Origin: Saccharospirillum sp.
GTDB lineage: Bacteria; Pseudomonadota; Gammaproteobacteria; Pseudomonadales; Natronospirillaceae
Assembly (NCBI GenBank): GCA_018402545.1
Contig: JAGYIL010000001.1
Location: forward strand, 558,001-622,000
Direction: 5' to 3'
Length of the DNA: 64,000 nucleotides
Part shown: piece by piece, positions 19,761 to 64,000 of the stretch
Layout of the letters: each line of letters starts with the position of its first letter
Numbering within the stretch: the first letter of the stretch is position 1
Translations under genes and position numbers: made by a program
Notes under the pieces: model-generated
Told to the model about the DNA's origin: nothing
Seen by the model: only the letters and a program-made list of their open reading frames with translations
Database searches by the model: none

Positions 19761-19853
19761 CCGGGGGTGTTCCTGTGGGGTCGGCGTGAATCCGTCCATG
19801 GAGCCTAGGCCGCAACATCCATGTTGCGGACTTCCCCACAGGAACACCCCCGG
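19761..19853 (+). repeat. Nested palindromic element, copy 1
   Basis: A perfect 20-bp stem joins 19761-19780 to 19834-19853. Enclosed are the conserved TCGGCGTGAA segment, a short hairpin CCGT-CC-ATGG and a perfect 9-bp hairpin CCGCAACAT-CC-ATGTTGCGG (19810-19829). It lies between the convergent ends of chpC and cyaA, 38 bases after chpC. It may serve both genes as a transcription end or RNA-protecting structure, but lacks a T-run. Confidence 0.9.
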
Positions 19854-19915
19854 CAACCGCCGCTGGTCTTCTCAGCTAACACCGAGACCTGAGAATTACC
19901 AACCCCGCACCTGGT

Positions 19916-22768
19916 TCAGAGAAGACGCATCGCGTCGTTAATGCGCTGTTCCAGGCGCAATTTGGCGCGCACGTAGTGCAGCGTCTGCGCCTGTCCATAG
20001 GGCAGGCCAGCAATAATCCGGTCGGATAGGGCGAGGTCGGTGATGTACATGGGGTAGCGTAGCCCCTGGGCTCGTAGCCCGACAATGTAAGACGCCACAG
20101 CTGTGTAAAACCGGTCGCCCAGTTCCAGGGTACTGAACTCTTCCTCGTTGCAGATCATCTGGTATTCGTACTGTCCCTCACCGTGCCGGTCCATAAACGC
20201 CTGGATGTTGATAAAGCGGTTTTCCTGCAGCAGCCCCTGCAGGCGCTGGCGCTTCAGTACCGGCAGCTTGCTGCCTTCCTGGGTCATTTCAAAACAACTG
20301 ATGCTGCGCTGATTCAGGTGAATGGCGTCTTCTTCACTGCGCTGGCGGTGCTCGGATATTTTCAGAAAGCGCAGCAAGGGTGCCAGCAGCGTTGACGCAT
20401 TAAAATAGGGCTGGGTAAACCGCAGCACGGAAGCCTGCTCATCGAGCAAATAGACCGTCGCCTGACGGCCCGTTACCTGAAACACCACCAGCAGGCCACC
20501 ATCGGCGGGTTGGGCTGACAAAACGACTTTCAAATGATTGCGCTGCGTTTCGAACAAACGGTCCGGGTAGATTGGGCAGCGTTCGGCTTGCTCGGTTCCC
20601 AGCCAGTCGATCAGGGCGGTTTCGGTATCGAAACTGACGGGTTTTAACTGTTTATCGCCCAGTTGCATGCCCTGAAACTGGTCGCCCAGGTTAAACAGGA
20701 ACCTGAGGCTGGGGCCCCGGTGGGCGCGGTCCGCGGCTGTGATGGCATCGTCAAACAGATCCTGTACCCGCTTGCCAATAGACTGGGGGCGTGTTTGGTT
20801 GTGGCAATAGGCGCGAATCTCGGGGCGCCGGTTGATTTTCTGTTTGGCCAGTCGCGTCAGCAGGAACTGCAGCGCCTGGGTCAGTGCATCGGCCTGGGCA
20901 AAGCGTTCGACGGTGATCTCACCCCAGGAGTTTTCGACCACCACATCCAGAGTGCCCACCAGGTTCTCGCGCAGTGCACTGAAGTCGAGGCTGTTGCTGC
21001 GTTCTGAAATTTTTTGCAGACCACGGCGAGTGAGATGTTGCAGCGGGTCGTAGCCCAGGTTGATAAAGAGTAGAACCCGATCAATTTGCGCCGGTTGCGA
21101 GTAAGTATGGTGAGGCTTGTCGAGGCTAGCCGAGGGTAAAACCTGGCGCAGGGTGGCCAGGGTTTTGCGCACTTCAAATTCCGTTGCCTGGCCCTGCTGG
21201 CTGAAGATGGGAATGTGCAGGTGAGCGTCGAGCAGGCCGTTGAGATGGCACCATAACAAGGCTTCAAGAAGGCCGGGTGCCGACTTCAGGGGTGTTTCCT
21301 GGTCCATATCCGAATCTGGTTCGCGGGTGTAGACGGCCCAGAAGTTGTCACCTTCGGCCCGCTGGCTCGGGCGTTCGTAGATGCGCACTTTCTCATAGCT
21401 GAAGTCGACGTCCTGGCCGAAGCGTATGAAGTCGATCTTACCGCGACGACGGTCAAAGGCAGCGTGCAACTTGCGGCTGATGATCAGCAGGTCTTGCTGG
21501 CTCATCAGGTGATTGCTCTGATGCTCGGCGGCAAACTGAGTCAGAAAACGGTAGCTGTGGGTCAGTTCGCTGACCAGCAGTTTGCGCTCGCGCATGACAT
21601 CGGTCACCGACCAGTTGCGGTGCGAGTCCAGATGCGCCACTTCAGCGCTGGTCCAGCCCCATTCATTGATCAGCTGTTGCATCAGCTGGCGTCGCCAGCT
21701 CTGGGCTCGGGCCGGCCGGCTCAGCGCGATGCCTACCTTGAAATAGAAGCAGCGACGCACCAGGGCCAGACGATCATGCTCTTCCCGTTCTCTCAGGTAG
21801 GTTTCAATGCGGCGGTAGAGTTGAATATAAGGGTCGAGGTCATTCAGCGTCAGAAAGTTGTTGTAGATCGCTGACTTGAACTGATGCGCGAGGCTGGTGA
21901 CCGTCGGGAACTCCCGCGCGTAGATTTCCAGCAGCAACAGCTTCAGCACGGATTTGTGCGGTGATTCGATGCCTTTGTACAGCTGCCACATGCCGGCACC
22001 TATAAACTCACCCGGTGGCAGTGAGGGCAGGGGGCCGAAGTTAATCTGTTCGTCACGGCGAATCAGGCTTTTCGACTGATAGTGCTCAAGCAGGGCCTCG
22101 TGCTCGGCTTCCCGGTCACTCGGTACCAGCCACCAGGCAGGCAGGGCACCGGCCAGCCATTGACCGGTTCGGTAGAACTCATCCAGCAGCAAAAAGTGCT
22201 GGGTTGAACCGCAGTTCTCCCCGGTCAGGGAGCGCTGATCACTGCCCTGAAAGTGCTGGGCGTTCATTAGGAAGATGTGCACTTCCAGGTTGAAGCCTTC
22301 CGCCCAGGCGCTGATGGCGCGGGCTTTTTCTTCCAGCAAGAGGATCTGGCTGCGATCCAGGTCGGGCTTGTAGCACAGCCAGAGATCGAGATCCGAGGTG
22401 GTCGACTGGGCTACGCTGCCACTGGAACCCATCAGGTAGAGACCCATCAGCTGCGCGTTGTAGTTGCGCAGCTGGGAGGCCTTCAGGGTGCGGTTAAAGG
22501 CCAGCGCCAGCGTGACCGCAGCGTTAGAGGGTTGGTATTGCACCAGTCCGGACGGTACCGAGGGGTCTTCGAGGTACCCGGGGAGGCCGGGCAGATGGGT
22601 GTGAAACAGTACTGGCAGCAAATCGAGACATTGTTGCTGGCGTACCTGAAGGCTGTCTCGCAGGCGGGCCAGGCGACCTTCATTCACCGTCAGGAAGCGT
22701 CGCTGTGTCTCAAGCAAGGCTTCGCGGGTGGCATTGTCAGGCGTCAGAACGGTACTGGTTTCGGTCAC
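19916..22768 (-). CDS. cyaA: Adenylate cyclase, class I
   Basis: 950 residues. The N-terminal catalytic half has the class I signature YLMGSSGSVAQS followed by SDLDLWLCY (about 112-134) with its metal-binding aspartates; the C-terminal half is the regulatory part. It converts ATP to cAMP, read by a CRP/Vfr-type regulator that is not in this window. The start is a GTG at 22768; no strong ribosome binding site was seen. It converges on chpC. In Pseudomonas the Pil-Chp system controls cAMP through a class III enzyme, so a class I cyclase beside the cluster is noteworthy. Confidence 0.95.
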   Translation of the reverse strand: MTETSTVLTPDNATREALLETQRRFLTVNEGRLARLRDSLQVRQQQCLDLLPVLFHTHLPGLPGYLEDPSVPSGLVQYQPSNAAVTLALAFNRTLKASQLRNYNAQLMGLYLMGSSGSVAQSTTSDLDLWLCYKPDLDRSQILLLEEKARAISAWAEGFNLEVHIFLMNAQHFQGSDQRSLTGENCGSTQHFLLLDEFYRTGQWLAGALPAWWLVPSDREAEHEALLEHYQSKSLIRRDEQINFGPLPSLPPGEFIGAGMWQLYKGIESPHKSVLKLLLLEIYAREFPTVTSLAHQFKSAIYNNFLTLNDLDPYIQLYRRIETYLREREEHDRLALVRRCFYFKVGIALSRPARAQSWRRQLMQQLINEWGWTSAEVAHLDSHRNWSVTDVMRERKLLVSELTHSYRFLTQFAAEHQSNHLMSQQDLLIISRKLHAAFDRRRGKIDFIRFGQDVDFSYEKVRIYERPSQRAEGDNFWAVYTREPDSDMDQETPLKSAPGLLEALLWCHLNGLLDAHLHIPIFSQQGQATEFEVRKTLATLRQVLPSASLDKPHHTYSQPAQIDRVLLFINLGYDPLQHLTRRGLQKISERSNSLDFSALRENLVGTLDVVVENSWGEITVERFAQADALTQALQFLLTRLAKQKINRRPEIRAYCHNQTRPQSIGKRVQDLFDDAITAADRAHRGPSLRFLFNLGDQFQGMQLGDKQLKPVSFDTETALIDWLGTEQAERCPIYPDRLFETQRNHLKVVLSAQPADGGLLVVFQVTGRQATVYLLDEQASVLRFTQPYFNASTLLAPLLRFLKISEHRQRSEEDAIHLNQRSISCFEMTQEGSKLPVLKRQRLQGLLQENRFINIQAFMDRHGEGQYEYQMICNEEEFSTLELGDRFYTAVASYIVGLRAQGLRYPMYITDLALSDRIIAGLPYGQAQTLHYVRAKLRLEQRINDAMRLL

Positions 22769-23068
22769 GGAGTTGGGCTCTGCAGCAAGGCATGGGTTGG
22801 CACGTCGGGTTCGGAAAGCTGATAACGGAAATTATTTCGTCGTGTTATCGGCAGAATGTGAATTACTTCAATAATTAGTGTAGCCGAAACCCGGTACTTT
22901 CCTAAAGAGGCAGACTCCGGTTTGTCATTTCAGCTGTTATACTTTGTTACAAAGGTAGCCAGGCTGAGGGGGTACACTCTGGCCTGCGTCAGCCAGCGCC
23001 GATGCGCGGCGACCGTAATTCGGTGGCGCATTGATCGAACCCAGTCTTGCCAGTGAAGTGGATCAGAG
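22769..23068. other. Divergent intergenic region, cyaA and response regulator (300 bases)
   Basis: No gene seen. It should contain promoters for cyaA (leftward) and for the two-component pair (rightward). A TATACT near 22940 could be a -10 element for the latter, but no matching -35 was found at the right distance. No clear repeat or terminator. Confidence 0.5.
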
Positions 23069-23803
23069 ATGCAGACAGAACAACAAAAGCGCATCCTGGT
23101 TGTGGACGATGATGAAGACATCCGCGACCTGTTGAAAGAATACCTTGAGAAAAACGGTTTTTCGGTCATAACAGCGGCTGATGGCCAGGCCATGCGTCAG
23201 TTCTGGCCCGCACAGCGCCTCGACCTGATCGTACTGGACATCATGATGCCTGGTGACGACGGCTTTACCCTGTGCAAGGAGATTCGCGCCCGTTCCCGCA
23301 TTCCCATCATCATGCTGACCGCCGGTTCAGACGAAACCGACCGCATCATCGGCCTTGAACTGGGCGCTGATGATTACGTGGGCAAGCCCTTTAACCCTCG
23401 CGAATTGCTGGCCCGTATCAAGGCCGTATTGCGCCGCTACGAGGAAGGTGCCGAGCACCGGACGGGTCTGGATGGCCAGCAGCGGCTGCGATTCGGTTGC
23501 TGGACTCTGGATGTGACCAACCGAGAGCTGACCAGCCCGGAAGGTGATGTTCAATCGTTGAACGGTGCCGATTACAATTTACTTCAGCTGTTTTTGTCAC
23601 GCCCGGGCGAAGTGCTCAGCCGGGATGACCTCAGTCTGCATCTGCGTGGCCGGGATGCCAGCCCCTTTGACCGCTCCATCGACGTGCAAATTAGCCGTTT
23701 GCGCGGGCGTCTGAATGATGATGGCAAATCCCCTCAAGTGATCAAGACCGTGCGTGGTGCGGGCTACATTCTTACGGTGCCGGTCGTCGTGGACAACGGT
23801 TAA
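23069..23803 (+). CDS. OmpR-family response regulator
   Basis: 244 residues. Receiver domain at about 7-120 with acidic residues D13-D15, phospho-acceptor D57 (IVLDIMMPGDDG) and lysine in VGKPFNP. A winged-helix DNA-binding domain follows (about 145-238: SLNGADYNLLQLFLSRPGEV, RSIDVQISRLR, IKTVRGAGYIL). It should act as a transcription regulator activated by the kinase encoded next to it; the target genes are not known. Its stop TAA shares one base with the kinase start (TAATG). Confidence 0.93.
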   Translation: MQTEQQKRILVVDDDEDIRDLLKEYLEKNGFSVITAADGQAMRQFWPAQRLDLIVLDIMMPGDDGFTLCKEIRARSRIPIIMLTAGSDETDRIIGLELGADDYVGKPFNPRELLARIKAVLRRYEEGAEHRTGLDGQQRLRFGCWTLDVTNRELTSPEGDVQSLNGADYNLLQLFLSRPGEVLSRDDLSLHLRGRDASPFDRSIDVQISRLRGRLNDDGKSPQVIKTVRGAGYILTVPVVVDNG

Positions 23804-26448: not shown

Positions 26449-26477
26449 GGTGCTGTTAAACAGCGGTTAAACCCAGT

Positions 26478-26786
26478 CCCCGAGGGGGTTCGACAAGCTC
26501 ACCCCGAACGGAATGTACCAGGTGGCACTTCAGACCACCACCCGTTCGCCCTGAGCTTGTCGAAGGGTCTTGGGGATCAGAACCAACCAGAGTTTAACGC
26601 TCATCCCCAAGGGGGTTCGACAAGCTCACCCCGAACGGAATGTAACAGGTGGCACTTCAGACCAACGCCCGTTCGCCCTGAGCTTGTCGAAGGGTCTTGG
26701 GGATCAGGACAAACCAGAGTTTAACGCTCATCCCTAAGGGGTTCGACAAGCGCATCCCGAACGGAAGAGTGAAAGGTGGCTGCCAT
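26478..26786. repeat. 127-bp tandem hairpin repeat, about 2.4 units
   Basis: Units begin at 26478, 26605 and 26732, a spacing of exactly 127 bases; the third is cut short. Each full unit holds a long inverted repeat: TTCGACAAGCTCACCCCGAA near its start and TTCGCCCTGAGCTTGTCGAA near its end. The arm resembles the TTCGACAAGCTCAGG-type palindrome scattered through many bacterial genomes. The array fills the gap between cdd and the convergent regulator gene. No T-run is present. Confidence 0.9.
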
Positions 26787-28864: not shown

Positions 28865-30340
28865 CTAAAATCCCAGTTCCTGCATCAGAGTGTCAACCCG
28901 GGCAGACACTTCCGGGTCTTTGACGATGGCCCGGCCCCATTCCCGGTCGGTTTCGCCCGGCCATTTGTTGGTCGCATCCATTCCCATTTTGGAACCAAGG
29001 CCGGCTACCGGACTGGCAAAGTCGAGATAATCGATCGGCGTATTGTTGATCATCACCGTATCCCGGCTTGGGTCCATGCGGGTAGTGATCGCCCAGATCA
29101 CGTCGTTCCAGTCGCGGGCATTCACGTCATCGTCCACGACAATCACATACTTGGTGTACATAAACTGGCGCAGGAAGGACCAGGCGCCCATCATCACCCG
29201 CTTGGCGTGGCCGGGGTACTGCTTCTTCATGCTGATCACTGCCATGCGGTAAGAACAGCCTTCGGGCGGCAGATAGAAGTCGACAATTTCCGGAAACTGC
29301 TTCTGCAGAATCGGCACGAACACCTCATTCAGGGCTACGCCCAATACCGCCGGTTCATCCGGTGGGCGGCCGGTAAAGGTGCTGTGATAGATCGGGTCGG
29401 TACGGTGCGTCAGCCGCTCAACGGTAAACACCGGGAAGCGTTCCACTTCGTTGTAATAGCCGGTGTGGTCACCGTAAGGCCCTTCGTCGGCCATCTCTTC
29501 GGGGTACAAGTAGCCTTCGAGAATGATTTCGGCACTGGCCGGCACCATCAGATCGTGCGTCTTGCATTTGACCAGTTCAGTCCGGCTATCGCGCAGCAAA
29601 CCGGCAAAGGCATATTCCGACAGAGAGTCCGGCACGGGAGTGACCGCACCAAGAATGGTCGCAGGGTCAGCCCCCAGCGCCACGGCAATCGGAAACGGCT
29701 CGCCAGGCCGCTCTTTCTTCCAGGCCTGAAAATCAAGCGCGCCACCGCGATGCGACAGCCAGCGCATGATCAGTTTGTTCTTGCCAATCACCTGCTGACG
29801 ATAGATCCCCAGATTGGTGCGGCCGCCGTTGGGTCCCTGGGTAATCACCAAGGGCCAGGTGACCAGTGGCGCGGCATCTTCCGGCCAGCACGTCCAGATG
29901 GGCCATTGCGACAGATCCACGTCAGGCCCTTCGAGCACTACGTCCTGGCAAACCGCCTTGCGCACGGTCTTGGGTGCCATCGACAGCACTTTCCTGACCA
30001 GTGGCAGCTTGTCCCAGGCGTCTTTCAACCCCTTGGGCGAATCCGGTTCTTTTAAATAGGCCAGCACCTTGCCAATCTCACGCAGGTCCGCCAGTGATTC
30101 GGCCCCCATGCCCATGGCCACCCGCTCGGGCGTACCAAAGAGGTTGCCCAATACCGGAATGTTGTAACCCGTTGGGTTTTCGAACAACAGCGCCGGGCCT
30201 TGCTGACGCAAAACCCGATCGCACAGATCGGTCATTTCAAGATGGGGGCTGACCGGCTGAGTCACGCGGCGTAATTCACCGCGTGCTTCCAGCCCGGCGA
30301 GAAAGTCTCGGAGGTCTCGGTATTTCATCGGGTCCGGCAT
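28865..30340 (-). CDS. ubiD: 4-hydroxy-3-polyprenylbenzoate decarboxylase
   Basis: 491 residues, very close to E. coli UbiD along its whole length (for example YDLR-like start [20 protein letters not shown]-like [45 protein letters not shown]). It removes the ring carboxyl in ubiquinone synthesis and needs the prenylated flavin made by UbiX, which is not in the window. The start may be the ATG at 30340 or the one four codons later at 30328, which gives MKYRDLRDF. Two palindromic elements lie upstream. Confidence 0.96.
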
Positions 30341-30408
30341 ACCTGCTAAAAAGGAAAGACCGAATGCTAATGCATTGGCGGCAATATGACGAATGTGAAG
30401 GGGGTGTC

Positions 30409-30626
30409 GTGTTCTGAGTTAGAAATTCGATGGCTAATCGGTGAGGAGGCAACCTGTACTGATGTGCCGAGAGGGCCACCGGGTACGTCTACTGACGGCA
30501 CGCCGTAAACCCCTCCCTGGGGGCTCGGAGACCACATCCATGTGGTCTAACGGCCGTCAGTAGACGCACCCGACAGCCCTTTGATCACCTCGGGTTAAAT
30601 CATCACGAATTTCTAACTCAGAACAC
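30409..30626 (+). repeat. Nested palindromic element, copy 2, with 21-bp outer inverted repeats
   Basis: The outer arms 30409-30429 and 30606-30626 are perfect 21-base inverted repeats. Inside, 30480-30499 pairs with 30553-30572 (19 of 20). Within that lie a segment CGCCGTAAACCCC and the perfect hairpin AGACCACAT-CC-ATGTGGTCT. Compared with copy 1 the stem bases are different but still pair. It lies upstream of ubiD, 69 bases from its start. With copy 3 it fills the 471-base gap between ubiD and the DUF971 gene; no gene was seen there. Confidence 0.9.
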
Positions 30627-30652
30627 TTACTTGGGCGGTTGCACAAAACTTA

Positions 30653-30765
30653 GTGCTGGGTACCGGGTACACCTAACCGGGGAAGTCTGAGGCATGGATG
30701 CCGAAGCCTAGGCCCCATGGAAGGGTTCACGCCGACCCCGGTTAGGTGTACCCGGTGCCTGGCAC
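30653..30765 (-). repeat. Nested palindromic element, copy 3
   Basis: A 30-bp stem joins 30653-30682 to 30736-30765 with only three G-T pairs as imperfections. Read on the minus strand it encloses TCGGCGTGAA, the hairpin region CCCTTCCATGGGG, CCTAGG, and the hairpin GGCAT-CC-ATGCC. It lies in opposite orientation to copy 2, 26 bases away, and 46 bases beyond the stop of the DUF971 gene. Confidence 0.9.
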
Positions 30766-30811
30766 GGACGACTGGCACCCAACCCAGCCAACCGTTCAAC
30801 CCGGGGGATAA

Positions 30812-31192
30812 TTAGAGCTGCTTAGCCTGAATGAACTGTGGCTCGCGACTGGCGCCGGCCTTACTAAGCCTGTCGAGGTAGGTTTGCCAGTAGGTTTCCT
30901 GGTCGTCGCCCAGCTTGCGCAGATAGGCCCAGTCGTAGAGGCCGGAGTCGTGTCCGTCGTCGAAGGTGATTTTGATGGCGTAGCGGCCGGTGGGTTCGAT
31001 GCCGGTGATGGTGACGTAGCGCTTGCCGATTTGCAGGACTTCCTGGCCGACGCCGTGTCCGCGGACTTCGGCTGAGGGGGAGTGTACTCGAAGGAACTCG
31101 GCGCTTAGGCGATGGTTTGTGCCGTCGGCCCAGCCCAGTTCCAGTTCTGCGGCTTCATTGTGGTAGGTGATGCGTTTGGGGGCCGTACTCAT
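30812..31192 (-). CDS. DUF971 (GbbH-like N-terminal domain) protein
   Basis: 126 residues, a single DUF971 domain (RITYHNEAAELELGWADG, LRVHSPSAEVRGHG, GRYAIKITFDDGHDSGLYDWAYL). The same small domain forms the N-terminus of gamma-butyrobetaine hydroxylase, but here it stands alone, so a hydroxylase activity should not be assumed. A gene of this type follows hslVU in Pseudomonas too. It starts 45 bases after hslU and probably belongs to that operon. Function unknown. Confidence 0.85.
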   Translation of the reverse strand: MSTAPKRITYHNEAAELELGWADGTNHRLSAEFLRVHSPSAEVRGHGVGQEVLQIGKRYVTITGIEPTGRYAIKITFDDGHDSGLYDWAYLRKLGDDQETYWQTYLDRLSKAGASREPQFIQAKQL

Positions 31193-31237
31193 GGCGGTGC
31201 CTCCATGGCGGCGGAGCCGGGCTCCGCCGCCGGCCGG

Positions 31238-32581
31238 TTAGAGGATAAAGCGGCTCAGGTCTTCGTTTTTCGACAGCTCGCCCAGGTACTTGTCGACATA
31301 GGCGGCGTCGATGGTCACCTTTTCGCCCCCCATTTCGCTGGCACGGTAGGAAAGATCTTCGAACAACCGTTCCATAATGGTGTGCAGGCGACGGGCACCG
31401 ATGTTCTCGGTGTTCTCGTTAACCTGGTACGCCGTGTTGGCCAGGGCTTCAATGGCATCGTCGGTGAACTCGATGTTCAGGCCTTCGGCCTGCATCAGCT
31501 CCTTGTATTGCTCGGTGATGCAGTAGTCCGGCTCGGTCAGGATGCGTTTGAAATCTTCCGGCGTCAGCGCATTCAGTTCGACCCGAATTGGCAGGCGGCC
31601 CTGAAGCTCAGGAATCAGATCGCTGGGTTTGGCGAAGTGAAAGGCACCGCTGCCGATGAACAGAATGTGATCGGTGCGGATCATGCCGTATTTGGTGGTG
31701 ACGGTGCTGCCTTCGATCAGCGGCAGCAAATCGCGCTGCACACCCTCGCGGCTGACATCACCGCCGCCCCGGTTTTCGGTTTTGGCGATTTTATCGATTT
31801 CATCGAGGAAGACGATGCCATTCTGTTCGACGGCCTGCACCGCTTGCTGGCGCAGTTCGTCTTCGTTGACCAGTTTGGCGGCTTCTTCATCGGTCAGCAC
31901 ACGCATGGCGTCTTTCAGCTTCATCTTGCGCTTCTTGGTGCGTTGCTTGCCCATGTTGGAAAACATGCTCTGCAATTGGCTGGTCATCTCTTCCATGCCC
32001 GGGGGCGCCATGATCTCTACGCCGCCGGATTGCTCGGCCACTTCCAGCTCAATTTCCTTGTCGTCCAGTTCGCCCTGGCGAATCTTCTTGCGAAAGATCT
32101 GACGGGTGCTGGAATCGGTTTTCGGGGCGTCTTTCTCTTCGTTTTCTTCGCTGTAACCGCCTCGTGCCGGTGGCAGCAGAATGTCGAGGATACGGTCTTC
32201 GGCGGCGTCTTCGGCGCGCGGCCGGGCACTGAGCATAGCCTGCTCGCGGAACATCTTTATACCGGTCTCGGCCAGGTCGCGGACGATGCTTTCGACATCG
32301 CGGCCAACGTAACCGACTTCGGTGAACTTGGTGGCTTCGACTTTGATGAAGGGAGCATTGGCCAGCTTGGCCAGGCGACGGGCAATTTCGGTTTTACCGA
32401 CACCGGTGGGGCCGATCATCAGTATGTTCTTGGGGGAGATTTCTTCGCGCATGCGCTCATCGAGTTGCATGCGGCGCCAGCGGTTGCGCAGGGCGATGGC
32501 CACGGAACGTTTCGCCTGGTCCTGGCCGATGATGTATTTGTCCAGTTCATGAACGATTTCGCGCGGGGTCATGGTTGACAT
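31238..32581 (-). CDS. hslU: HslU, ATPase subunit of the HslVU protease
   Basis: 447 residues. Walker [18 protein letters not shown] (about 57-73) and Walker B FLDEIDKI flank the large I-domain (about 110-240), and the C-terminus ends in the LSRFIL tail that inserts into HslV to activate it. The AAA+ ring unfolds substrates and feeds them to HslV in the cytoplasm. Starts 11 bases after hslV; heat-shock control is likely through the upstream promoter. Confidence 0.97.
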
Positions 32582-32592
32582 CAGATACCTCG

Positions 32593-33111
32593 TTACAGCG
32601 CTTCAAAAACGGCGTTGTGGTTGGTGAATACGCAGATATCGGCTGCGATATCCAGCGCTCGCCGCGCGATGGCGTCAGCGTCCAGTTCGGTGTTTTCGTG
32701 CAGGGCCCGCGCTGCCGCGAGCGCATAGTTGCCGCCGGAGCCGATGGCGACGATGCCATGTTCCGGTTCAACCACATCGCCGGTGCCGGAGATCACCAGG
32801 GTGGTTTCCTTGTCGGCGACCACCAGCATGGCTTCGAGCCGGCGCAGTGCCCGGTCGCTGCGCCATTCTTTGGCCAGTTCAACGGCTGCACGGGTCAGGT
32901 GGCCGCTGTGCTGCTGCAGGTGGCCTTCGAATTTTTCAAAGAGGGTGAAGGCATCGGCGGTGCCACCGGCAAAGCCAGCGATCACTTTTTCGTGATACAG
33001 GCGGCGTACTTTGCGGGCGTTGCCTTTCATTACGGTGTTGCCCAGGGAGACCTGGCCGTCGCCACCGATCACTACGGTGTTGTCGCGACGCACGGAAACA
33101 ATCGTCGTCAT
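32593..33111 (-). CDS. hslV: HslV, peptidase subunit of the HslVU protease
   Basis: 172 residues from the ATG at 33111. This start gives MTTIVSVRR, so that removal of Met exposes the catalytic N-terminal threonine; the longer readings starting upstream would bury it and can be excluded. The rest follows E. coli HslV closely ([53 protein letters not shown]). It forms the proteolytic core with HslU. Confidence 0.97.
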
Positions 33112-33138
33112 CTCTACATCCATTGAGGCTTTGTCGGG

Positions 33139-33166
33139 TATGTGGGGGCGGGCGACAAATTTCAAA
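33139..33166 (-). promoter_or_regulatory. Heat-shock (sigma-32-type) promoter of hslVU
   Basis: On the minus strand TTTGAA (33166-33161, within CTTTGAAA) is followed after 13 bases by CCCCACATA (33147-33139). This matches the sigma-32 consensus CTTGAAA, 13-15 bases, CCCCATNTA, with few differences. The start site would lie about 20 bases before the hslV ATG. hslVU is a heat-shock operon in E. coli. Confidence 0.7.
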
Positions 33167-33198
33167 GTGTTGGCGGGGCGTAAAGGCGGATGTTGAAT

Positions 33199-33386
33199 CT
33201 CAAGTTTCGGAGTTCGCGGTTAGCTTTGTAGTCAGTCGCCCGCACCGGCCACCAGGTAGGGCTATCGAGGGTCGGCGTTAACCCATCCATGGGGCCTGGT
33301 CCGCAGCATCCTTGCTGCGGACCACCCTCGATAGCCCTACCTGGCATCCGGCGCTAATCTTTTACTAGCGAACTCCGAAACTTGAG
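33199..33386 (+). repeat. Nested palindromic element, copy 4, with 19-bp outer inverted repeats
   Basis: Perfect outer arms lie at 33199-33217 and 33368-33386 (CTCAAGTTTCGGAGTTCGC and its complement). A perfect 20-bp inner stem joins 33252-33271 to 33325-33344. Inside are TCGGCGTTAA, the hairpin CCCAT-CC-ATGGG and a perfect 12-bp hairpin at 33297-33324. It lies upstream of hslV and downstream of the SPOR gene. Its outer arms are nearly the same as those of copy 5. Confidence 0.92.
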
Positions 33387-33420
33387 TTGAATGACCCCGA
33401 AGGCCGTCGGGGTCATTCAA
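33387..33420 (-). terminator. 14-bp perfect hairpin after the SPOR gene
   Basis: TTGAATGACCCCGA pairs perfectly with TCGGGGTCATTCAA around a 6-base loop, two bases beyond the stop of the SPOR gene. No T-run follows, so it is either a non-classical terminator or an RNA end-protecting structure for the argS-SPOR transcript. Confidence 0.6.
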
Positions 33421-33422
33421 CG

Positions 33423-34064
33423 TCAGTTCAGATTGCGCACCACGACTTCGTGGTCGAGTTCCGCCAACACATCCTGTGCCCGGTTAAGTCGTGAACGATT
33501 GTCAAAGGGCCCGACCATCACGCGATGGAAAGTGCCTCGGTCGCCGAGGTCGACGGTACTCAGATGCGCTTCAGTCAGGCCGTTGATGATCAACTCGGCG
33601 CGTAACCGGTCGGCATCGGCGACCCTGCTGAAGGAAGCAACCTGAATAATCCAGCGCTCAGCGGCAGCTGGCGTTGCTGGCGCCCGGGTGTCCCTCGGCG
33701 CATCGTCGGCCCCTGGCGGGGTATCTGCTTCCGGCCGGGTCAGTTGAATCGGCACTTCATCGTCGCGCAGCAGCCGGTAGAACTCGAATGCCTGCTCCAG
33801 CGACGGTGTGGTCGATGTTTCTTCTTCCGGTTCCGCAATTGGCTCAGGGTCTGTTTCTGCTGAAGAGCGCGACGGAATCTGAATTTGCTGCACCCGGTCG
33901 CGTACCGCCTGAGCGCCCTGGCCATCGGCCGGAATCTGGCTGAGGTAAGTCAGGAAACCCACAAAGGCGACCGATGCAAGCGTAGTAAACACCCACACCC
34001 AGCGCGGAATGCGGCTGCGTTCCGGCGGGGGCGGTGGTGGCTTGTTGGCGAAATCGCGCGCCAT
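33423..34064 (-). CDS. SPOR-domain protein (FtsN-like)
   Basis: 213 residues. One membrane segment at about 22-43 follows a short basic cytoplasmic end rich in proline (KPPPPPPERSR), then a low-complexity periplasmic linker and a C-terminal SPOR domain (about 138-210: RWIIQVASFSRVADADRLRAEL). SPOR domains bind denuded septal peptidoglycan. The position between argS and hslV is that of the FtsN-like gene of Pseudomonas and of ftsN in E. coli, so a divisome role is likely, though the essential FtsN motif was not identified. Two bases after argS. Confidence 0.85.
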   Translation of the reverse strand: MARDFANKPPPPPPERSRIPRWVWVFTTLASVAFVGFLTYLSQIPADGQGAQAVRDRVQQIQIPSRSSAETDPEPIAEPEEETSTTPSLEQAFEFYRLLRDDEVPIQLTRPEADTPPGADDAPRDTRAPATPAAAERWIIQVASFSRVADADRLRAELIINGLTEAHLSTVDLGDRGTFHRVMVGPFDNRSRLNRAQDVLAELDHEVVVRNLN

Positions 34065-34066
34065 GG

Positions 34067-35752
34067 TTACATGCTCTCCGGTGCACTGACGCCGAGCAGG
34101 TCCAATCCATTGGCCAGTACCTGGCCAACGGCGACCGCCAGGGCGACTCGGCCATTCCGCAATTCGGCGTCATCGACCAGCATGCGGTTATTGTTGTAAT
34201 AGGCATGGAACTGGCTGGCCAGATCTTTCAAAAAAGTTGCGATGCCTGCCGGTTCCAGCGACTGGCCGGCATGGGCCACGGCCTCCGGATAGCGCCGTAG
34301 CTGGGTCATCAGCGCCCGTTCGTCGTCCAACTCCAGTTTGCTCAGAGCGTCGATGCCCTGTTGCTGGTCGTAGCGGAGGCCTTCCTGTTCGAGCTTGCGC
34401 AGCAATGCATGTACCCGGGCATGGGCGTATTGAATGTAATAGACCGGGTTGTCGTTGCTTTGGCTGCGTGCCAGATCGATATCGAACGTCAGTTGCGAGT
34501 CGGCGCGGCGGGAGACCAGGAAGTACCGGGTAGCGTCGCTGCCGACTTCGTCGATGAGATCGCGCAGGGTGACATAGTCGCCGGCCCGCTTGGAAATCTT
34601 AACTTCTTCACCGCCTTTGGTAACCATCACCATCTGATGCAGCACATAGTCCGGGTAGCCTTCCGGAATACCCAGTTGCAGTGCCTGCAGACCGGCACGT
34701 ACCCGGGTGACGGTACTGTGATGGTCCGCGCCCTGTTCGTTGATCACGCGCTTGAAGCCGCGGTCGAACTTGTCTTTGTGGTAGGCAACGTCCGGCAGGA
34801 AGTAGGTGTAACCGCCGTCCCGCTTGCGCATGACGCGGTCTTTGTCGTCACCAAACTCGGTGGTTTTCAGCCAGAGGGCGCCATCCGACTCATAGGTGAA
34901 GCCTTGCTCGATCAGGCGCTGCACCGTCGCTTCCACCTTGCCATCGTCGTACAGCGAGGATTCCAGAAAGAAGACATCGAACCGCACGCCAAAGGCTTTC
35001 AGATCCAGATCCTGCTCGCGGCGAAGGTAGGCGACGGCGAACTCTTGAATGGCATCGAAGTTGTCGGCATCAGCAACACCGGTTACGTGCCGGTCATCGG
35101 CATCAATGGTGTCGCCGTTCATGTAGCTGTTTGCGACATCGGTGATGTAGTTTCCCCGGTAACCATCGGCGGGCCAGCCACTGTCTTCCGGACCCAGACC
35201 CTTGGCGCGGGCCTGGACAGACAAAGTGAGATTCTTGATTTGGGCGCCGGCGTCGTTGTAATAGAACTCCCGGGTCACGTCCCAGCCATTGGCCGCCAGT
35301 AACCGGCACAACGAATCACCAACGGCAGCACCGCGACCGTGACCGACGTGTAATGGGCCGGTCGGGTTGGCTGACACAAATTCGACCTGGACTTTCTCTC
35401 CCTGGCCACTGGCATTGCGACCAAAGGCGGCCCCCTGACTGAGAATATCGGCAACAATTTCCGCACTGGAAGCGCCTGCCAGAAACACGTTAATAAATCC
35501 GGGTCCGGCAATCTCGACTTTGCTGATCAGGGAGTTTTCAGGCAATGCGGCAATGATCTGTTCGGCCATGGCGCGCGGTGGCTGCCCGCAGGGTTTGGCC
35601 AGAGTCAGGGCAATGTTGCTGGCCAGGTCGCCATGCGACTTATCGCGTGTGTTGTCGACCATGATGCGCACCTGGTGTTCCCCGGGAATAACGCCGCTGG
35701 ACTTCAACTGGCTGACAGCCTGGTTCAGTAACTCGGCAACCTGATCTTTCAT
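34067..35752 (-). CDS. argS: Arginyl-tRNA synthetase
   Basis: 561 residues, a class I synthetase. The HIGH-type motif is HVGHGRG (about 132), with the adjacent FVSANPTGP segment, and the KMSK-type motif reads KISKRAGD. The N-terminal Add-1 domain and the C-terminal anticodon-binding helices are complete. It charges tRNA-Arg. A GGGAG ribosome binding site precedes the ATG. Followed by the SPOR gene in one operon. Confidence 0.97.
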   Translation of the reverse strand: MKDQVAELLNQAVSQLKSSGVIPGEHQVRIMVDNTRDKSHGDLASNIALTLAKPCGQPPRAMAEQIIAALPENSLISKVEIAGPGFINVFLAGASSAEIVADILSQGAAFGRNASGQGEKVQVEFVSANPTGPLHVGHGRGAAVGDSLCRLLAANGWDVTREFYYNDAGAQIKNLTLSVQARAKGLGPEDSGWPADGYRGNYITDVANSYMNGDTIDADDRHVTGVADADNFDAIQEFAVAYLRREQDLDLKAFGVRFDVFFLESSLYDDGKVEATVQRLIEQGFTYESDGALWLKTTEFGDDKDRVMRKRDGGYTYFLPDVAYHKDKFDRGFKRVINEQGADHHSTVTRVRAGLQALQLGIPEGYPDYVLHQMVMVTKGGEEVKISKRAGDYVTLRDLIDEVGSDATRYFLVSRRADSQLTFDIDLARSQSNDNPVYYIQYAHARVHALLRKLEQEGLRYDQQQGIDALSKLELDDERALMTQLRRYPEAVAHAGQSLEPAGIATFLKDLASQFHAYYNNNRMLVDDAELRNGRVALAVAVGQVLANGLDLLGVSAPESM

Positions 35753-35900
35753 TGTGTGCGAAACTCCCGTTTATATCGTAGGCGGTACAGAGGCGCTCAC
35801 CCGGCTGGGCGGTGGAGGCAGTGTGAATGCTGGGCATTATCCATGAAACCCTGTCCGGACTCCACCGCTGCTGGCGCTGTCGCGATGAGTCACCGGGTAG

Positions 35901-36092
35901 GTAACTCACGTTTCGGAGTTCGCGACTAACCGAGTGCCAGGCACCGGGTGTGCCTGTCCGGGGTAGTCCGCAACATGGATGTTGCGGTCTAGGCCCCATG
36001 GATGGGTTTACGCCGACCCCGGACAGGTGCACCCGGTTCCTGGCACGGACCATTGGCAACATTGCAAACCCGAACTCCGAAACTTGAGTTAC
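35901..36092 (-). repeat. Nested palindromic element, copy 5, outer arm reaching the priA stop codon
   Basis: A 30-bp stem joins 35934-35963 to 36017-36046 with two G-T pairs and one mismatch. Outer arms 35901-35924 and 36069-36092 pair at 22 of 24 positions and share CGTTTCGGAGTTCG-type sequence with copy 4. The right outer arm covers the TAA stop of priA (36089-36091). Inside, on the minus strand, are ACGCCGA/TCGGCGT, CCCAT-CC-ATGGG and CCGCAACAT-CC-ATGTTGCGG. It occupies most of the 336-base gap between argS and priA; the rest shows no gene. Confidence 0.92.
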
Positions 36093-38293
36093 ATCAGATC
36101 GATCGGGTCGATGTCCAGATGCCAGCTGACATGGCGTTGCTGGCGTGGGTAGTCGGCTACCAGCGGTTGCAGCGCGGTGTGCAGGCGGCTGCGCTGGTCA
36201 CTCTGCACCAGCAGCGTAAAACGGTGCTTCCCAGCGCGTCGTGACAGCAAGGCGGGCAGTGGGCCGAATACCCGGATGCCCGGCTCGGCAAGGAGGCGCC
36301 CGGCCATTTCTTTTAATAGCTGTTCTGCCCGTTGCGGATAGGCGCTGTCGCTTCGCAGGCAGGCCAGGAAACCAAAGGGCGGTAACCCGGAGCGCTGGCG
36401 TTCTTCCAGTAGTTGAGCCGCAAAGGCCGGGTAGTCCTGCTCCAGCAGGGGTGTAAAGAAGGGGTGGTCCGGGTGAAAGGTCTGCAGCACCACCTCGCCT
36501 GCCAGGTCGCCCCGGCCCGAGCGGCCGGATACCTGAACCAGAAGTTGGCCCATGCGTTCGCGGGCGCGGAAGTCGGCGCTGAACAGTCCTGAGTCCATAT
36601 CGATGATGCCGACCAGCGTTACGCGCTCGAAATGGTGACCCTTGGCCAGCATTTGGGTGCCGACCAGTATGGCGGGCCCGTCGGCCTGGGCTCGGTTTAA
36701 CTGTTGCTCCAGATCGCGCGCATTGGCGACTGAGTCCCGGTCGAACCGAATAATGGGAGTGTCCGGAAACCAGGCTGCCAGTGCTTCTTCGGCGCGTTCA
36801 GTACCGGCGCCCAGAGGGGTCAGGTCGGTTGAGCCGCAATCAGGGCATTGCTGTTGCGGGCGCTCCTGATGGCCGCAGTGATGACACAGCATCTGGTGAC
36901 GGCCGCGATGATAGGTTAGGCGGGCATCGCAAAACGGGCAATCCGACATCCAGCCGCACTGACGACAGAACCAGGAAGGCGCATAACCGCGCCGGTTCAG
37001 AAACAACAATACCTGGTTGCCGCCTTCAAGGTGCTGGCGAATCCGGTGCAGCAGGCGTTCCGAGACGCCGTGTTCCTGGCGCTGCTTGCGCATGTCGATG
37101 GTTTCCAGCCGGGCTCGCTTCTGACCCTGGGCCCGTTGCTGCAGTTGCTGGTGTTGGTAGCGGCCTTGCTGGGCGTTGTGCAGGGATTCCAGTGACGGCG
37201 TAGCCGAGCCCAGCATAACCGGTATGTTCAGCAGGCGGGCCCGGTAAATGGCAAGGTCCCGGGCGTGGTAGCGCAGGGTGTCTTGTTGTTTGTAGGAGGC
37301 ATCGTGCTCTTCATCGACGACGATCAGCCCCAGGTCCGGTATGGGCGTCAGGATGGCAGAGCGTGTCCCCAGAATGATGCTGGCCTCACCCGCCTGGGCC
37401 CGCAACCAGGCGTTGTTGCGCTGTTTGTCGGTCATACCGCTGTGAAGGGCCACCAGGTTGTCCTGAAAGCGTTGCTGGAACCGGGCCAGTGTTTGCGGCG
37501 TCAGGCCTATTTCCGGAACCAGCACCAGTACACGCTTGCCGCGTTCCAGCACGCGTTGCATGGCTTGCAGATAGACTTCGGTCTTGCCACTGCCGGTGAC
37601 CCCTTCTAGCAGTTGCACGGCAAAGCCTTCGACCGGCAATGTCGCCAGTGCGGCGGTTTGGTCCGGGTTCAGTGACAGCGCTTGCTGACGCAGCGTTCCT
37701 GTGGGAGTGGCTGGGAAGAGCTGGGCCGGGCGTTGCTTGAGCAGGCGCTTGTCAATGAGGCCCTTCCAGTGGGTGCGGTCGACATCCTGGCTTCTTAGTA
37801 GTGCAGGCGTGCAGACCTGCCCGGCTTTAGTCAGCGACTGGAGCAAGGCCAGCGCCTCACGCTGGCGACGGCCTTTGAGTTTGTCGGGGTCAAGATGTTC
37901 ACCGGAGACCGTCAATTCAAGCTGTGGCTCGTCATTCAACTCGGCTGGCTCGCCAGACCGGAGCGCGGCTGGAAAGGCCAGCATGTAGGCCGGGTAGGCG
38001 TCGTATAAGTAATAGCGGCTGACCCACTGCGCCAGTTGCAGCACATCGGGGCTGAGCAGGGGGGCGTCATCAAGTACATCGACAATGCTTTTCAGGGTGT
38101 CACTGTCGCCAGGTTGTGCCGGGCGAACACCGGTCACCACGCCGACCACCTGGCGCGAGCGCAGCGGAACCTTGCACCGACTGCCGGGAACCGGCGTCTG
38201 GCCCGGCTCGATCCGGTAGCTTAGCGGGCCTGCGAAAGGGCCTGGTACGGTGATATCAGCGATGCGCAGCGGGTCTTTGGAAGTGGTTGTCAA
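36089..38293 (-). CDS. priA: Primosomal replication-restart helicase PriA
   Basis: 734 residues. N-terminal 3'-DNA-binding domain, then helicase motifs GVTGSGKTEVY (about 230) and DEEHDASYK, and a zinc-binding insertion with paired cysteines (CRQCGWMSDCPFCDARL, CHHCGHQERPQQQCPDCG, each split by a few residues). It reloads the replisome at stalled forks. The start appears to be TTG at 38293: no ATG lies near, and the sequence from there matches the family. The ribosome binding site is weak, which suggests low expression. Confidence 0.95.
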   Translation of the reverse strand: MTTTSKDPLRIADITVPGPFAGPLSYRIEPGQTPVPGSRCKVPLRSRQVVGVVTGVRPAQPGDSDTLKSIVDVLDDAPLLSPDVLQLAQWVSRYYLYDAYPAYMLAFPAALRSGEPAELNDEPQLELTVSGEHLDPDKLKGRRQREALALLQSLTKAGQVCTPALLRSQDVDRTHWKGLIDKRLLKQRPAQLFPATPTGTLRQQALSLNPDQTAALATLPVEGFAVQLLEGVTGSGKTEVYLQAMQRVLERGKRVLVLVPEIGLTPQTLARFQQRFQDNLVALHSGMTDKQRNNAWLRAQAGEASIILGTRSAILTPIPDLGLIVVDEEHDASYKQQDTLRYHARDLAIYRARLLNIPVMLGSATPSLESLHNAQQGRYQHQQLQQRAQGQKRARLETIDMRKQRQEHGVSERLLHRIRQHLEGGNQVLLFLNRRGYAPSWFCRQCGWMSDCPFCDARLTYHRGRHQMLCHHCGHQERPQQQCPDCGSTDLTPLGAGTERAEEALAAWFPDTPIIRFDRDSVANARDLEQQLNRAQADGPAILVGTQMLAKGHHFERVTLVGIIDMDSGLFSADFRARERMGQLLVQVSGRSGRGDLAGEVVLQTFHPDHPFFTPLLEQDYPAFAAQLLEERQRSGLPPFGFLACLRSDSAYPQRAEQLLKEMAGRLLAEPGIRVFGPLPALLSRRAGKHRFTLLVQSDQRSRLHTALQPLVADYPRQQRHVSWHLDIDPIDLM

Positions 38294-60007: not shown

Positions 60008-60073
60008 GCGGGCTCCTTCATCAAAGTCTTAAGGGTACGCTGCCAGTGTATCACCAAAGTTAAGCACCTGAAT

Positions 60074-60102: not shown

Positions 60103-60132
60103 GCGCCCACTTTTTCTACAGGATCTACCGCC

Positions 60133-61197
60133 ATGGCTGAACTGACCAATGATCGCTTCCTGCGCGCCCTTATGCGCGAACCCACTGACCGCACGCCGGT
60201 ATGGATGATGCGCCAGGCCGGGCGGTATTTGCCGGAGTACCGGGCTTCGCGGGCTGAGGCAGGCGATTTCCTCAGCCTGTGCAAGAACGCCGACTTCGCC
60301 TGTGAAGTCACCTTGCAGCCGCTGGAGCGGTACCCGCTGGATGCCGCCATCCTGTTTTCCGACATTCTCACCATTCCCGATGCCATGGGCCTCGGGCTCT
60401 ATTTCGAGACAGGTGAAGGCCCACGCTTCGAACGCACCGTGCGTACCATGGCCGATGTAGAAGCATTGCATAAGCCAAATATGGCGAGTGATCTGGGCTA
60501 TGTGATGAATGCCGTTAGTACCATTCGCGGTGCCCTGAATGGGCGAGTGCCACTGATTGGCTTTTCCGGTAGCCCCTGGACACTGGCGACTTACATGATC
60601 GAAGGCGGCAGCTCCAAGGATTTCCGTCACATCAAAGCCATGCTGTACAACGACCCGGATACCCTGCATGCGCTACTGACCCGCCTTGCCGATTCCGTCA
60701 CAGACTACCTGAATGCCCAGATCGAAGCGGGCGCTCAGGCCGTTCAGATTTTTGATACCTGGGGTGGCGCACTCGGCCACTCGGTCTATCCGACCTTCTC
60801 GCTGGATTACATGACTCGCATTGTGAAAGGCCTGAAACGGACCCATCAGGGTCGCAGAGTGCCGGTAATCCTCTTTACCAAAGGCGGTGGCCAGTGGCTG
60901 GAGTCGATGGCCGCGTCTGGCGCCGATGCGCTGGGTCTGGACTGGACGACGTCACTGGCCGATGCCCGGGCACGCGTCGGCGAGCAGGTTGCGTTGCAAG
61001 GCAATATGGACCCCTCAGTGCTCTATGCCTCACCGGACGGAATTCGGACCGAAGTCGAACGCATTCTGGCGGAGTATGGCAAAGGCTCAGGCCATGTTTT
61101 CAACCTTGGTCACGGCATTCACCAGTTTGTTGATCCTGACCATGCCGGTGCGTTTGTTGAAGCTGTGGTGGAATTGAGTCCTAAGTATCATCGGTAA
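60133..61197 (+). CDS. hemE: Uroporphyrinogen decarboxylase
   Basis: 354 residues. The substrate-binding N-terminus ([18 protein letters not shown], about 17-34), the catalytic aspartate in [12 protein letters not shown] and the [16 protein letters not shown] segment are complete. It removes four carboxyl groups from uroporphyrinogen III in haem synthesis. It has its own promoter and is followed by a palindromic element. Confidence 0.97.
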
Positions 61198-61253
61198 CTT
61201 GTTTGCAGGCATCAAACCGCGGATTGTAGAGTATTGATGTGAGGGAAAGCTGA

Positions 61254-61366
61254 GTGCCAGGCGTCGGGTTGGCTTATCCGGGGTAGTCCGCAACAGGGAT
61301 GTTGCGGCCTAGGCCCCACGGATGGGTTAACGCCGACCCCGGAGAAGCCAACCCGATGACTGGTAC
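61254..61366 (-). repeat. Nested palindromic element, copy 6
   Basis: A 30-bp stem joins 61254-61283 to 61337-61366 with two G-T pairs and two mismatches. On the minus strand it encloses TCGGCGTTAA, CCCAT-CC-GTGGG, CCTAGG and CCGCAACA-TCCC-TGTTGCGG. It lies between the convergent ends of hemE and the acylase gene, 56 bases after hemE. No outer repeat was seen. Confidence 0.9.
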
Positions 61367-61411
61367 GTGTTCCTGGCAATTCAGTATAACGAGCCTCCGG
61401 CCCTCGGTTGA

Positions 61412-63817: not shown

Positions 63818-63888
63818 GCCTGTTTCCTTTTATGAAAACGTTCAGTGTTATTTTTGTGGTCAGGCTTGGCACAAAGCCAAGTGACAGT

Positions 63889-64000
63889 CGCCGGGTCTAG
63901 CTGTCCGGGGGAGTCCGCATCAGGGATGATGCGGCCTAGGCCCGAGACGTCGGACCGCCATGGACAGGTTCATGCCGACCCCGGACAGCTAGACCCGGTG
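63889..64000 (-). repeat. Nested palindromic element, copy 7 (reaches the window edge)
   Basis: A 22-bp stem joins 63889-63910 to 63979-64000 with one G-T pair and may continue outside the window. On the minus strand it encloses TCGGCATGAA, an enlarged first hairpin region with extra sequence not seen in the other copies, CCTAGG, and CCGCATCA-TCCC-TGATGCGG. A small hairpin CTTGGC-ACAAA-GCCAAG lies just before it (63865-63881). It lies upstream of the acylase gene. Confidence 0.85.

What the first reader, a model, noticed from the sequence alone, without database searches (positions are those of the whole stretch)
19761..64000. Family of seven nested palindromic intergenic elements with covarying arms
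Copies at 19761, 30409, 30653, 33199, 35901, 61254 and 63889 share a plan: a 20-30 bp stem, TCGGCGT then TAA or GAA, a hairpin around CCCATCCATGGG, CCTAGG, and a second hairpin with an ATCCAT-like apex. Stem sequences differ between copies but pair each time. For example, the second hairpin is built on CCGCAACA, CCGCAGCA, CCGCATCA, GACCACA or GGCA, each with its matching complement. Such compensating change means that structure, in RNA or single-stranded DNA, is being kept. The plan recalls ERIC or REP/BIME elements in scale, but the sequence is not one I know.
Basis: seen in the sequence. Interest (0 to 1): 0.85.

Follow-up and report, generated by a model that had tools for sequence, protein, structure and literature searches.

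The report
Scattered CsrA-type RNA hairpin repeats
A marine bacterium carries well over a hundred scattered copies of a small folded RNA element whose two loops look like landing sites for the global regulator CsrA; the element belongs to a known but unexplained RNA family, and copies that lie next to each other nearly always point away from one another.

Summary
All seven copies exist in this Saccharospirillum window; the genome has at least 150 (capped). Stems differ between copies yet pair (96.8% of cells, covariation 0.46 against 0.16 shuffled). The family has a name: Rfam RF01731, TwoAYGGAY. RF01731 and a model built from these copies hit the same places on the same strand, although the window copies fall below Rfam's threshold. 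The structured strand is the complement of the one quoted: stem wobbles are G-U there 104 to 6, and its loops read CANGGANG, the published CsrA/RsmA hexaloop, with two GGA sites 23 nt apart. CsrA binding of TwoAYGGAY was predicted in 2014; in my searches I found no report of what follows. The element is a mass-amplified dispersed repeat, in 99 of 293 genomes of the order, in none of 264 cases inside a called gene. Insertion sites differ between species; lone copies invert in place (5 of 8 orthologous sites). Neighbours under 300 bp apart face 5' to 5' in 50 of 53 cases. Best reading: a mobile dual-site CsrA/RsmA decoy. Binding, expression and the mobilising enzyme are unproven.

The parts
19747..19868 (-). 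element copy 1, core (stem P1/P2, hpA, hpB); outer arms decayed
   Evidence: R1 129.8 bits; site without element in the S. impatiens genome
30465..30588 (-). element copy 2, divergent core, left member of a head-to-head pair
   Evidence: R1 70.8 bits; ortholog in the S. impatiens genome aligned by eye, with an insert in a hairpin apex
30411..30429 (+). outer inverted-repeat arm of copy 2 (GTTCTGAGTTAGAAATTCG)
   Evidence: read
30606..30624 (-). matching outer arm of copy 2
   Evidence: read
30648..30769 (+). element copy 3, right member of the head-to-head pair (5' ends face, 59 nt between the cores)
   Evidence: R1 117.3 bits
33238..33359 (-). element copy 4, core
   Evidence: R1 136.2 bits; no element at this site in the S. 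impatiens genome or strain MSK14-1
33199..33216 (+). outer 18-bp inverted-repeat arm of copy 4 (CTCAAGTTTCGGAGTTCG)
   Evidence: the only 6-bp direct flanking repeat among 32 arm pairs
33369..33386 (-). matching outer arm of copy 4
35929..36050 (+). element copy 5, core; CATGGATG loops at 35974-35981 (hpA) and 35997-36004 (hpB)
   Evidence: R1 134.9 bits; sequence; the ortholog in the S. impatiens genome is inverted in place
35905..35922 (+). outer inverted-repeat arm of copy 5
36071..36088 (-). matching outer arm of copy 5
61249..61370 (+). element copy 6, core
   Evidence: R1 125.5 bits
63876..64000 (+). element copy 7 with the alternative second hairpin (CCCGAGACGTCGGACCGCC module), cut by the window end
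   Evidence: R1 85.8 bits, cut at 3'; sequence

Best explanation
The copies are a dispersed, mobile form of the TwoAYGGAY RNA (RF01731). Its end carries two hairpins, each presenting a CANGGANG hexaloop, with the two GGA sites 23 nt apart: room for one CsrA/RsmA dimer to clamp both. When that strand is transcribed, the copy would bind and titrate CsrA/RsmA, so the genome's many copies would act together as a decoy pool. SHOWN by computation: family identity, covariation, strand, loop consensus, spacing, dispersion, insertion differences, in-place inversion of lone copies, head-to-head neighbours. INFERRED: that the strand is transcribed, that CsrA binds it, that binding matters to the cell, and how copies move.
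For: Loops: of 127 distinct ungapped copies, hpA is CANGGANG in 124 and hpB in 126; only the N positions vary freely, and the A never changes although its pairing partner does. Thirteen copies with a long module add two hairpins, each with an NGGA loop in 13 of 13. In a set of 36 copies, 35 from other genera and 1 from a sister Saccharospirillum, GGA is kept in the hpA loop in 36 and in the hpB loop in 35 by my reading. Strand: stems P1 and P2 show 104 G-U against 6 A-C on the CANGGANG strand, and 53 against 3 in 61 copies from other genera; changes in unpaired columns do not show the mutational bias that would be needed. RF01731 and R1 co-hit L271, L275, L276 and L286 on one strand. Published: ANGGAN hexaloop in the RsmE structure, bridging of sites 10-63 nt apart with an optimum above 18 nt, CsrB repeat CAGGA(U/A/C)G (PMC7652899 passages); CANGGAYG for RsmA (PMC9308961 and PMC7705225 passages). 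The genome has one csrA match, and its product keeps L4 and R44.
Against: Little or no preference for the sense orientation in tandem gene contexts: 22 to 20, 25 to 11 (p 0.03) and 17 to 17 in the three sets, pooled 64 to 48 (p 0.16). Promoter-like scores in pair spacers do not exceed shuffles (p 0.67). Copy number runs from 7 to at least 150 among sister species. Lone copies invert in place, which is odd if transcription of one strand mattered at each site. The review says most SELEX CsrA hairpins had four or fewer contiguous pairs, while hpA has about eight. Inside hpA the wobble bias is weak or reversed (7 to 2, 2 to 10), and in hpB it is 0 to 25 and 0 to 4. No expression or binding data. 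The hpB loop statistic is partly biased because the first loci were fetched with a motif containing CCATCC.
Confidence: 0.5

Rival explanations
1. A selfish mobile element: folding and loop conservation serve its own mobilisation through an RNA or single-stranded DNA intermediate, its GGA loops being read by an unidentified enzyme; CsrA is irrelevant or only borrowed.
For: Presence/absence differences at orthologous sites, among them a pair whose second element is missing in the S. impatiens genome; weak or no orientation preference to genes; siblings at 90-94% identity elsewhere in the genome; copies replaced or inverted in place; neighbours that are not local duplicates of each other.
Against: No cognate enzyme found, though only PF01797 was searched; that one match sits with another REP family. 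Loop conservation matches the CsrA code down to which positions vary. No consistent target duplication (3 of 32).
Confidence: 0.3
2. An mRNA 3'-end element: the hairpin lies just after stop codons and stabilises or ends transcripts, independent of CsrA.
For: 0 of 264 counted copies lie inside called genes; when a gene runs towards a lone copy the median distance from its end is 24-61 nt, except 114 nt on the 5' side in the convergent cases of the non-Saccharospirillum set; convergent sites outnumber divergent ones, 27 to 9, 11 to 2 and 7 to 2 (p 0.004, 0.02, 0.18).
Against: Both orientations are common, so one-strand conservation is unexplained; the loop code is unexplained; I saw no T-run beside the copies that I read, but ran no terminator scan.
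Confidence: 0.1
3. Plain DNA palindromes kept paired by template switching and gene conversion, with no RNA role.
For: Module swaps and replaced cores at orthologous sites look like conversion; stems change fast yet stay paired.
Against: Does not give the G-U over A-C strand bias in the stems (104 to 6 and 53 to 3) nor the one-sided loop code.
Confidence: 0.07

Closest known systems
TwoAYGGAY RNA, Rfam RF01731 (Weinberg 2010, PMC2864571: table row seen; predicted CsrA-binding in PMC4333381: passages seen)
   Same: Same order of two hairpins with AYGGAY-type loops on a long stem, same strand; RF01731 and R1 hit the same intervals at L271, L275, L276, L286
   Different: In the own genome 26 of 28 RF01731 matches are below Rfam's cut-off; the element is amplified to at least 150 copies, often has outer 18-bp inverted repeats and sometimes extra hairpins. 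The passages that I saw describe neither dispersion nor head-to-head pairs
CsrB/CsrC, RsmX/Y/Z decoy sRNAs
   Same: GGA hairpin loops with the CsrA/RsmA consensus, more than two sites in the long variants
   Different: Those are recalled as single genes with their own promoter and terminator; here many copies, no established promoter, two sites in the usual copy. RsmZ model RF00166: none over its cut-off in this genome; CsrB, CsrC and RsmY models were not run on the genome
REP/BIME/REPIN elements with RAYT transposases
   Same: Intergenic palindromes, many copies, doublets in fixed relative orientation (REPIN geometry recalled)
   Different: Longer (122-nt core), two-hairpin apex; the one Y1-transposase match of this genome sits with another REP family
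MITEs
   Same: Terminal inverted repeats, no coding capacity seen, presence/absence differences between species
   Different: No consistent target duplication, no partner transposase identified, covarying internal structure

Membership tests
TwoAYGGAY RNA (RF01731) | two terminal hairpins with AYGGAY-type loops in this order and strand | tested here: met
TwoAYGGAY RNA (RF01731) | score at or above the gathering cut-off of 43 bits | tested here: inconclusive
   0 matches in the window, none for the copies in 30300-36150 at E<=1; 2 of 28 matches in the own genome over the cut-off, one of them (C1:2445936) also an R1 match; 3 of 6 genus genomes have at least one over it
TwoAYGGAY RNA (RF01731) | independent model from these copies finds accepted members | tested here: inconclusive
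   R1 scores 121.4, 105, 60.6 and 72.7 bits on L271, L275, L276 and L286, all over the RF01731 cut-off, and 25.8-27.4 bits on L280 (second copy), L281 and L287; it misses L282-L285, L288, L274, the first L280 copy, and the RF01731 places of L270 and L273
CsrA/RsmA decoy RNA | GGA in hairpin loops with CANGGAYG/ANGGAN consensus | tested here: met
CsrA/RsmA decoy RNA | two sites within bridging distance | tested here: met
   23 nt from GGA to GGA in alignment A2; published range 10-63 nt
CsrA/RsmA decoy RNA | transcribed from its own promoter | tested here: inconclusive
   pair spacers no better than shuffles (p 0.67); 5' flanks score slightly above 3' flanks (7.59 against 7.34, n 263, p 0.0006), but they are also richer in A+T; other promoter types and expression not tested
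CsrA/RsmA decoy RNA | binds CsrA | not testable with these tools
   needs a binding assay
REP/RAYT | copies flank a RAYT gene | tested here: not met
   no R1 match in the 3.2-kb locus of the one PF01797 match
MITE | terminal inverted repeats | tested here: met
   32 arm pairs
MITE | target-site duplication | tested here: not met
   3 of 32 have a direct repeat of 4-6 bp
ERIC | ERIC consensus sequence | not tested
   no ERIC sequence was compared

The most novel reading that the evidence does not exclude
A mobile repeat of Gammaproteobacteria that carries its own dual CsrA/RsmA clamp, amplifies to 150 or more copies, flips freely when alone, but is locked 5'-to-5' whenever two copies share an intergenic region: a dispersed, evolvable decoy system for a global regulator with an unknown rule of pairing.
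Probability: 0.35. Interest if true: 0.8.

Novelty: new variant of a known kind. Interest (0 to 1): 0.6.

Why it matters
TwoAYGGAY was listed as an RNA motif in 2010 and called of unknown function in 2014. Seeing it as an abundant, mobile, orientation-ruled repeat, with loop evolution that follows the CsrA/RsmA code, gives many natural variants and hosts in which the 2014 CsrA prediction can be tested. It also raises a new question: how can a genome carry 150 or more potential binding sites for one small regulator? The head-to-head rule is a clear regularity that any model of its origin or function must explain.

Tried and rejected
RAYT/REP origin: rejected, because the one Y1-transposase match has its own REP family. 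RsmZ identity: RF00166 gave only matches far below the cut-off. MITE with target duplication: no consistent duplication. Local duplication as the source of pairs: in 16 own-genome pairs the partner ranks 23rd to 111th in similarity among 113 other copies. Promoter in the spacer: no excess over shuffles; a small excess in 5' over 3' flanks exists (p 0.0006) and is confounded with A+T content. Insertion with the 5' side next to a pre-existing hairpin: no difference in Saccharospirillum (p 0.70), a trend only in the other set (p 0.10). Sense orientation to host genes: weak or none. Plasmid and phage collections: no match to a 58-nt consensus query. Viral contigs: one motif match without an R1 match, overlapping an open frame in a contig whose frames I read as phage-like. 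Literature: paper searches listed no paper that I recognised as on these repeats in Saccharospirillum or on CsrA-site repeats; of the five papers listed for TwoAYGGAY I saw passages of all five. Only open-licence papers are held; subscription journals and supplements were not seen.

Limits: the gene caller used for context is my own and crude. The R1 genus search scored at most 150 candidates per genome and the order search 12, so counts are lower bounds. The first 53 loci were chosen by a motif that includes part of the hpB loop; later loci were mostly chosen by a model trained on 45 of them. Orthologous sites are 21 locus pairs with enough flank, not all sites. The 127 copies are the ungapped, anchored ones of 204 distinct. 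Names given to G handles (G015 S. impatiens, G017 S. salsuginis, G018 MSK14-1, G019 PBR18_bin23) are inferred from matching contig numbers and coordinates.
Full report
WHAT IS THERE. All seven places hold one element. A motif with at most one mismatch is found 156 times in the genome, 0 in the reversed control. A covariance model (R1, 122 positions, 41 pairs, from 45 copies) gives 150 matches, its cap, in the own genome and in G017, and 147, 130, 15 and 7 in the other four genomes of the genus.

A 7-bp outer helix, a small internal loop and a 20-bp stem lead to an end with two hairpins: hpA (8 bp plus 2 beyond a mismatch) and hpB (4 bp), followed by a conserved stretch, TTNACGCCGA in most Saccharospirillum copies. 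Many copies have a further 18-bp outer inverted repeat, CTCAAGTTTCGGAGTTCG; 32 arm pairs were examined and 3 have a direct repeat of 4-6 bp next to them. Variants swap modules: a long hpA with two extra hairpins, an alternative hpB, and alternative 3' joints.

COVARIATION AND STRAND. On 45 copies 96.8% of cells pair, 31 of 41 pairs change on both sides, covariation score 0.460 against 0.163 for shuffles and at most 0.100 for slid partners. On 61 copies from other genera the figures are 97.6%, 39 of 41 (3 of 500 shuffles reach that), and 0.911 against 0.206 (that alignment is fitted to the model's structure, so it leans towards it). In stems P1 and P2 of 127 distinct copies, nearly all Saccharospirillum, G-U on this strand outnumbers A-C 104 to 6; hpA is 7 to 2, and hpB is 0 to 25, because its innermost A has a free partner. 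In the 61 copies the stems give 53 to 3, while hpA gives 2 to 10 and hpB 0 to 4. Unpaired conserved columns show C>T 3 and A>G 4 against G>A 16 and T>C 23 on the same strand, so a mutational bias of the kind needed is not seen. The CM itself scores this strand at 120-142 bits and the other at about 35-54 for good copies, although it was trained on this strand.

LOOPS. hpA: CATGGATG 58, CAGGGATG 38, CAAGGATG 26 and five others, 124 of 127 CANGGANG. hpB: 126 of 127 CANGGANG, the last variable position being T 91, C 25, A 11. The A before N is invariant in both hairpins though its partner in hpB is T, C or A. Thirteen long modules add CCNGGAG in 12 (one TCAGGAG) and CANGGANG in 13 of 13. In 36 copies, 35 of other genera and one of a sister Saccharospirillum, GGA is kept in the hpA loop in 36 and the hpB loop in 35 by my reading; strict CANGGANG is missing in some, where the loop is for example CAGGACG or GAGGGATC. 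This is the published CsrA/RsmA code: an ANGGAN hexaloop and bridging over 10-63 nt (PMC7652899, passages), CANGGAYG (PMC9308961, PMC7705225, passages), and CAGGA(U/A/C)G in CsrB. The two GGAs start 23 nt apart. The genome has one csrA match, whose protein keeps L4 and R44.

NAME. Rfam finds nothing at its cut-offs in the window, and no RF01731 at E<=1 in 30300-36150. A copy from another genus gave RF01731 TwoAYGGAY at 41.9 bits, cut-off 43, full length, same strand (for such long perfect hairpins many microRNA models also give sub-threshold hits). RF01731 searched in the genus matches 6 of 6 genomes at E<=1, 3 of 6 over the cut-off, and 0 of 14 control genomes. RF01731 and R1 coincide in place and strand at L271 (47.8 and 121.4 bits), L275 (46.6 and 105), L276 (45.8 and 60.6) and, in a genome outside the order, L286 (55.0 and 72.7); weakly at L281, L287 and one L280 copy; other RF01731 places are missed by R1. 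So these are divergent, amplified TwoAYGGAY RNAs. The family was listed in 2010 (table row seen), and two CsrA-motif matches with a sequestering role were proposed in 2014 (passages). Passages of three later papers treat hairpin stability and covariation only. I did not see supplements.

SPREAD. R1 matches 99 of 293 genomes of the order at E<=1e-4, 48 of 118 genera, with at most 12 scored per genome. RF01731 matches 24 of 369 genomes drawn from the class at E<=1e-3, 16 over the cut-off, several with seven, the cap. A Nitrincola copy (126.8 bits) still has a Saccharospirillum-type outer arm on one side, which suggests transfer between genera.

CONTEXT. None of 264 counted copies lies inside a called gene. 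In tandem gene contexts lone copies are sense 22, antisense 20 in the own genome; 25 and 11 in other Saccharospirillum (p 0.03); 17 and 17 in the third set; pooled 64 and 48 (p 0.16) (crude gene calls). Convergent sites exceed divergent ones, 27 to 9, 11 to 2, 7 to 2 (p 0.004, 0.02, 0.18). Promoter-like scores are slightly higher in 5' than in 3' flanks (7.59 against 7.34, n 263, p 0.0006), but the 5' flanks are richer in A+T, and pair spacers do not exceed their shuffles (p 0.67).

HEAD-TO-HEAD RULE. Of deduplicated neighbours under 300 bp apart, 40 of 40 have the CANGGANG strands diverging, 5' ends facing (16 own genome, 14 other Saccharospirillum, 10 other genera); at 300-1000 bp 6 of 8 do; over 1000 bp they are mixed (12 '+-', 9 '-+', 8 '--', 5 '++'). 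Further RF01731 or R1 neighbours give 10 '-+' and 3 '++' under 300 bp (recounted): two '++' in one tandem array of partial cores (L277) and one outside the order (G390). That makes 50 of 53. One more '-+' pair of two sub-threshold RF01731 matches is (G017:C6, about 245110-245577) and is not counted. Some of the 53 are the same ancestral pair in sister species (at least L020/L082, L138/L095 and window/L118), so independent events are fewer. Partners are not each other's closest relatives, and in one pair the second element is absent from the S. impatiens genome, so pairs can arise by separate events.

EVOLUTION IN PLACE. At orthologous sites (21 locus pairs), elements are absent at window 19747 and 33238 and at the L030, L148 and L130 sites; the L016 row reads 'no element', but weak R1 matches there suggest a disrupted copy. 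The L006 row maps to a different element 0.7 kb away and was set aside; one search shows a remnant without core at the site. Lone copies with an ortholog are in the same orientation in 3 cases (L140, L141, L257) and inverted in 5 (L028, L215, L218, window 35929, L155). For L028 the core is 58/121 identical as it lies and 104/122 when reversed, with flanks in order and compensated stem changes. Members of '-+' neighbours, two of these sets 521 and 849 bp apart, keep their orientation in 12 of 12 rows (L020 x2, L138 x2, L144 x2, L152 first copy, L255 x2, window 30465 and 30648 against L118, window 30648 against L198), reading partners in order; rows that cross to the other partner were set aside. 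Other sites show a core replaced by another subfamily (L141/L099) or a joint module exchanged (L140/L094, L152/L067).

HOW IT MOST LIKELY WORKS. Dual CsrA/RsmA clamp on a stem, spread as a repeat, collectively a decoy: about 0.5. The conserved loops and strand are hard to explain without an RNA or single-strand stage and a GGA reader. The weak orientation preference, lack of an established promoter and free inversion of lone copies are evidence against a role at each single locus, and keep the selfish-element rival at 0.3. The cause of the head-to-head rule is unknown.

Noticed in passing
window 26461-26781: A second repeat family (GGGGTTCGACAAGCTCACCCCGAACGG...) with further copies in the genome, absent at this site in the S. 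impatiens genome
   Followed up: no
L219 (G000:C1 about 1871362): A Y1-transposase gene, RAYT-like by its surroundings, with several copies of its own REP family around it (GTAGGAAGCCAGTCCTCTGGG...)
   Followed up: partly
L270 1165-1285, L273 1279-1399: A second TwoAYGGAY subclass in Saccharospirillum, over the RF01731 cut-off but missed by R1
   Followed up: partly
L277 1248-1884 (G015:C53): Three tandem TwoAYGGAY-like cores alternating with a REP-like sequence, an exception to the head-to-head rule
   Followed up: partly
L207 606-712, L210 573-662, L211 651-736: Short 86-107 bp palindromes with the same 18-bp outer arms that R1 does not match at those places
   Followed up: no
L120 3527-3648: A Nitrincola alkalilacustris copy very like the Saccharospirillum ones, with the outer arm seen on one side only
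   Followed up: partly
L257/L259: Orthologous copies in another genus with about 90.6% identical surroundings but a much more changed, re-paired stem
   Followed up: partly
5' flanks of 263 copies: Slightly higher sigma-70-like scores and A+T content than in the 3' flanks; may hint at promoters or only at composition
   Followed up: partly
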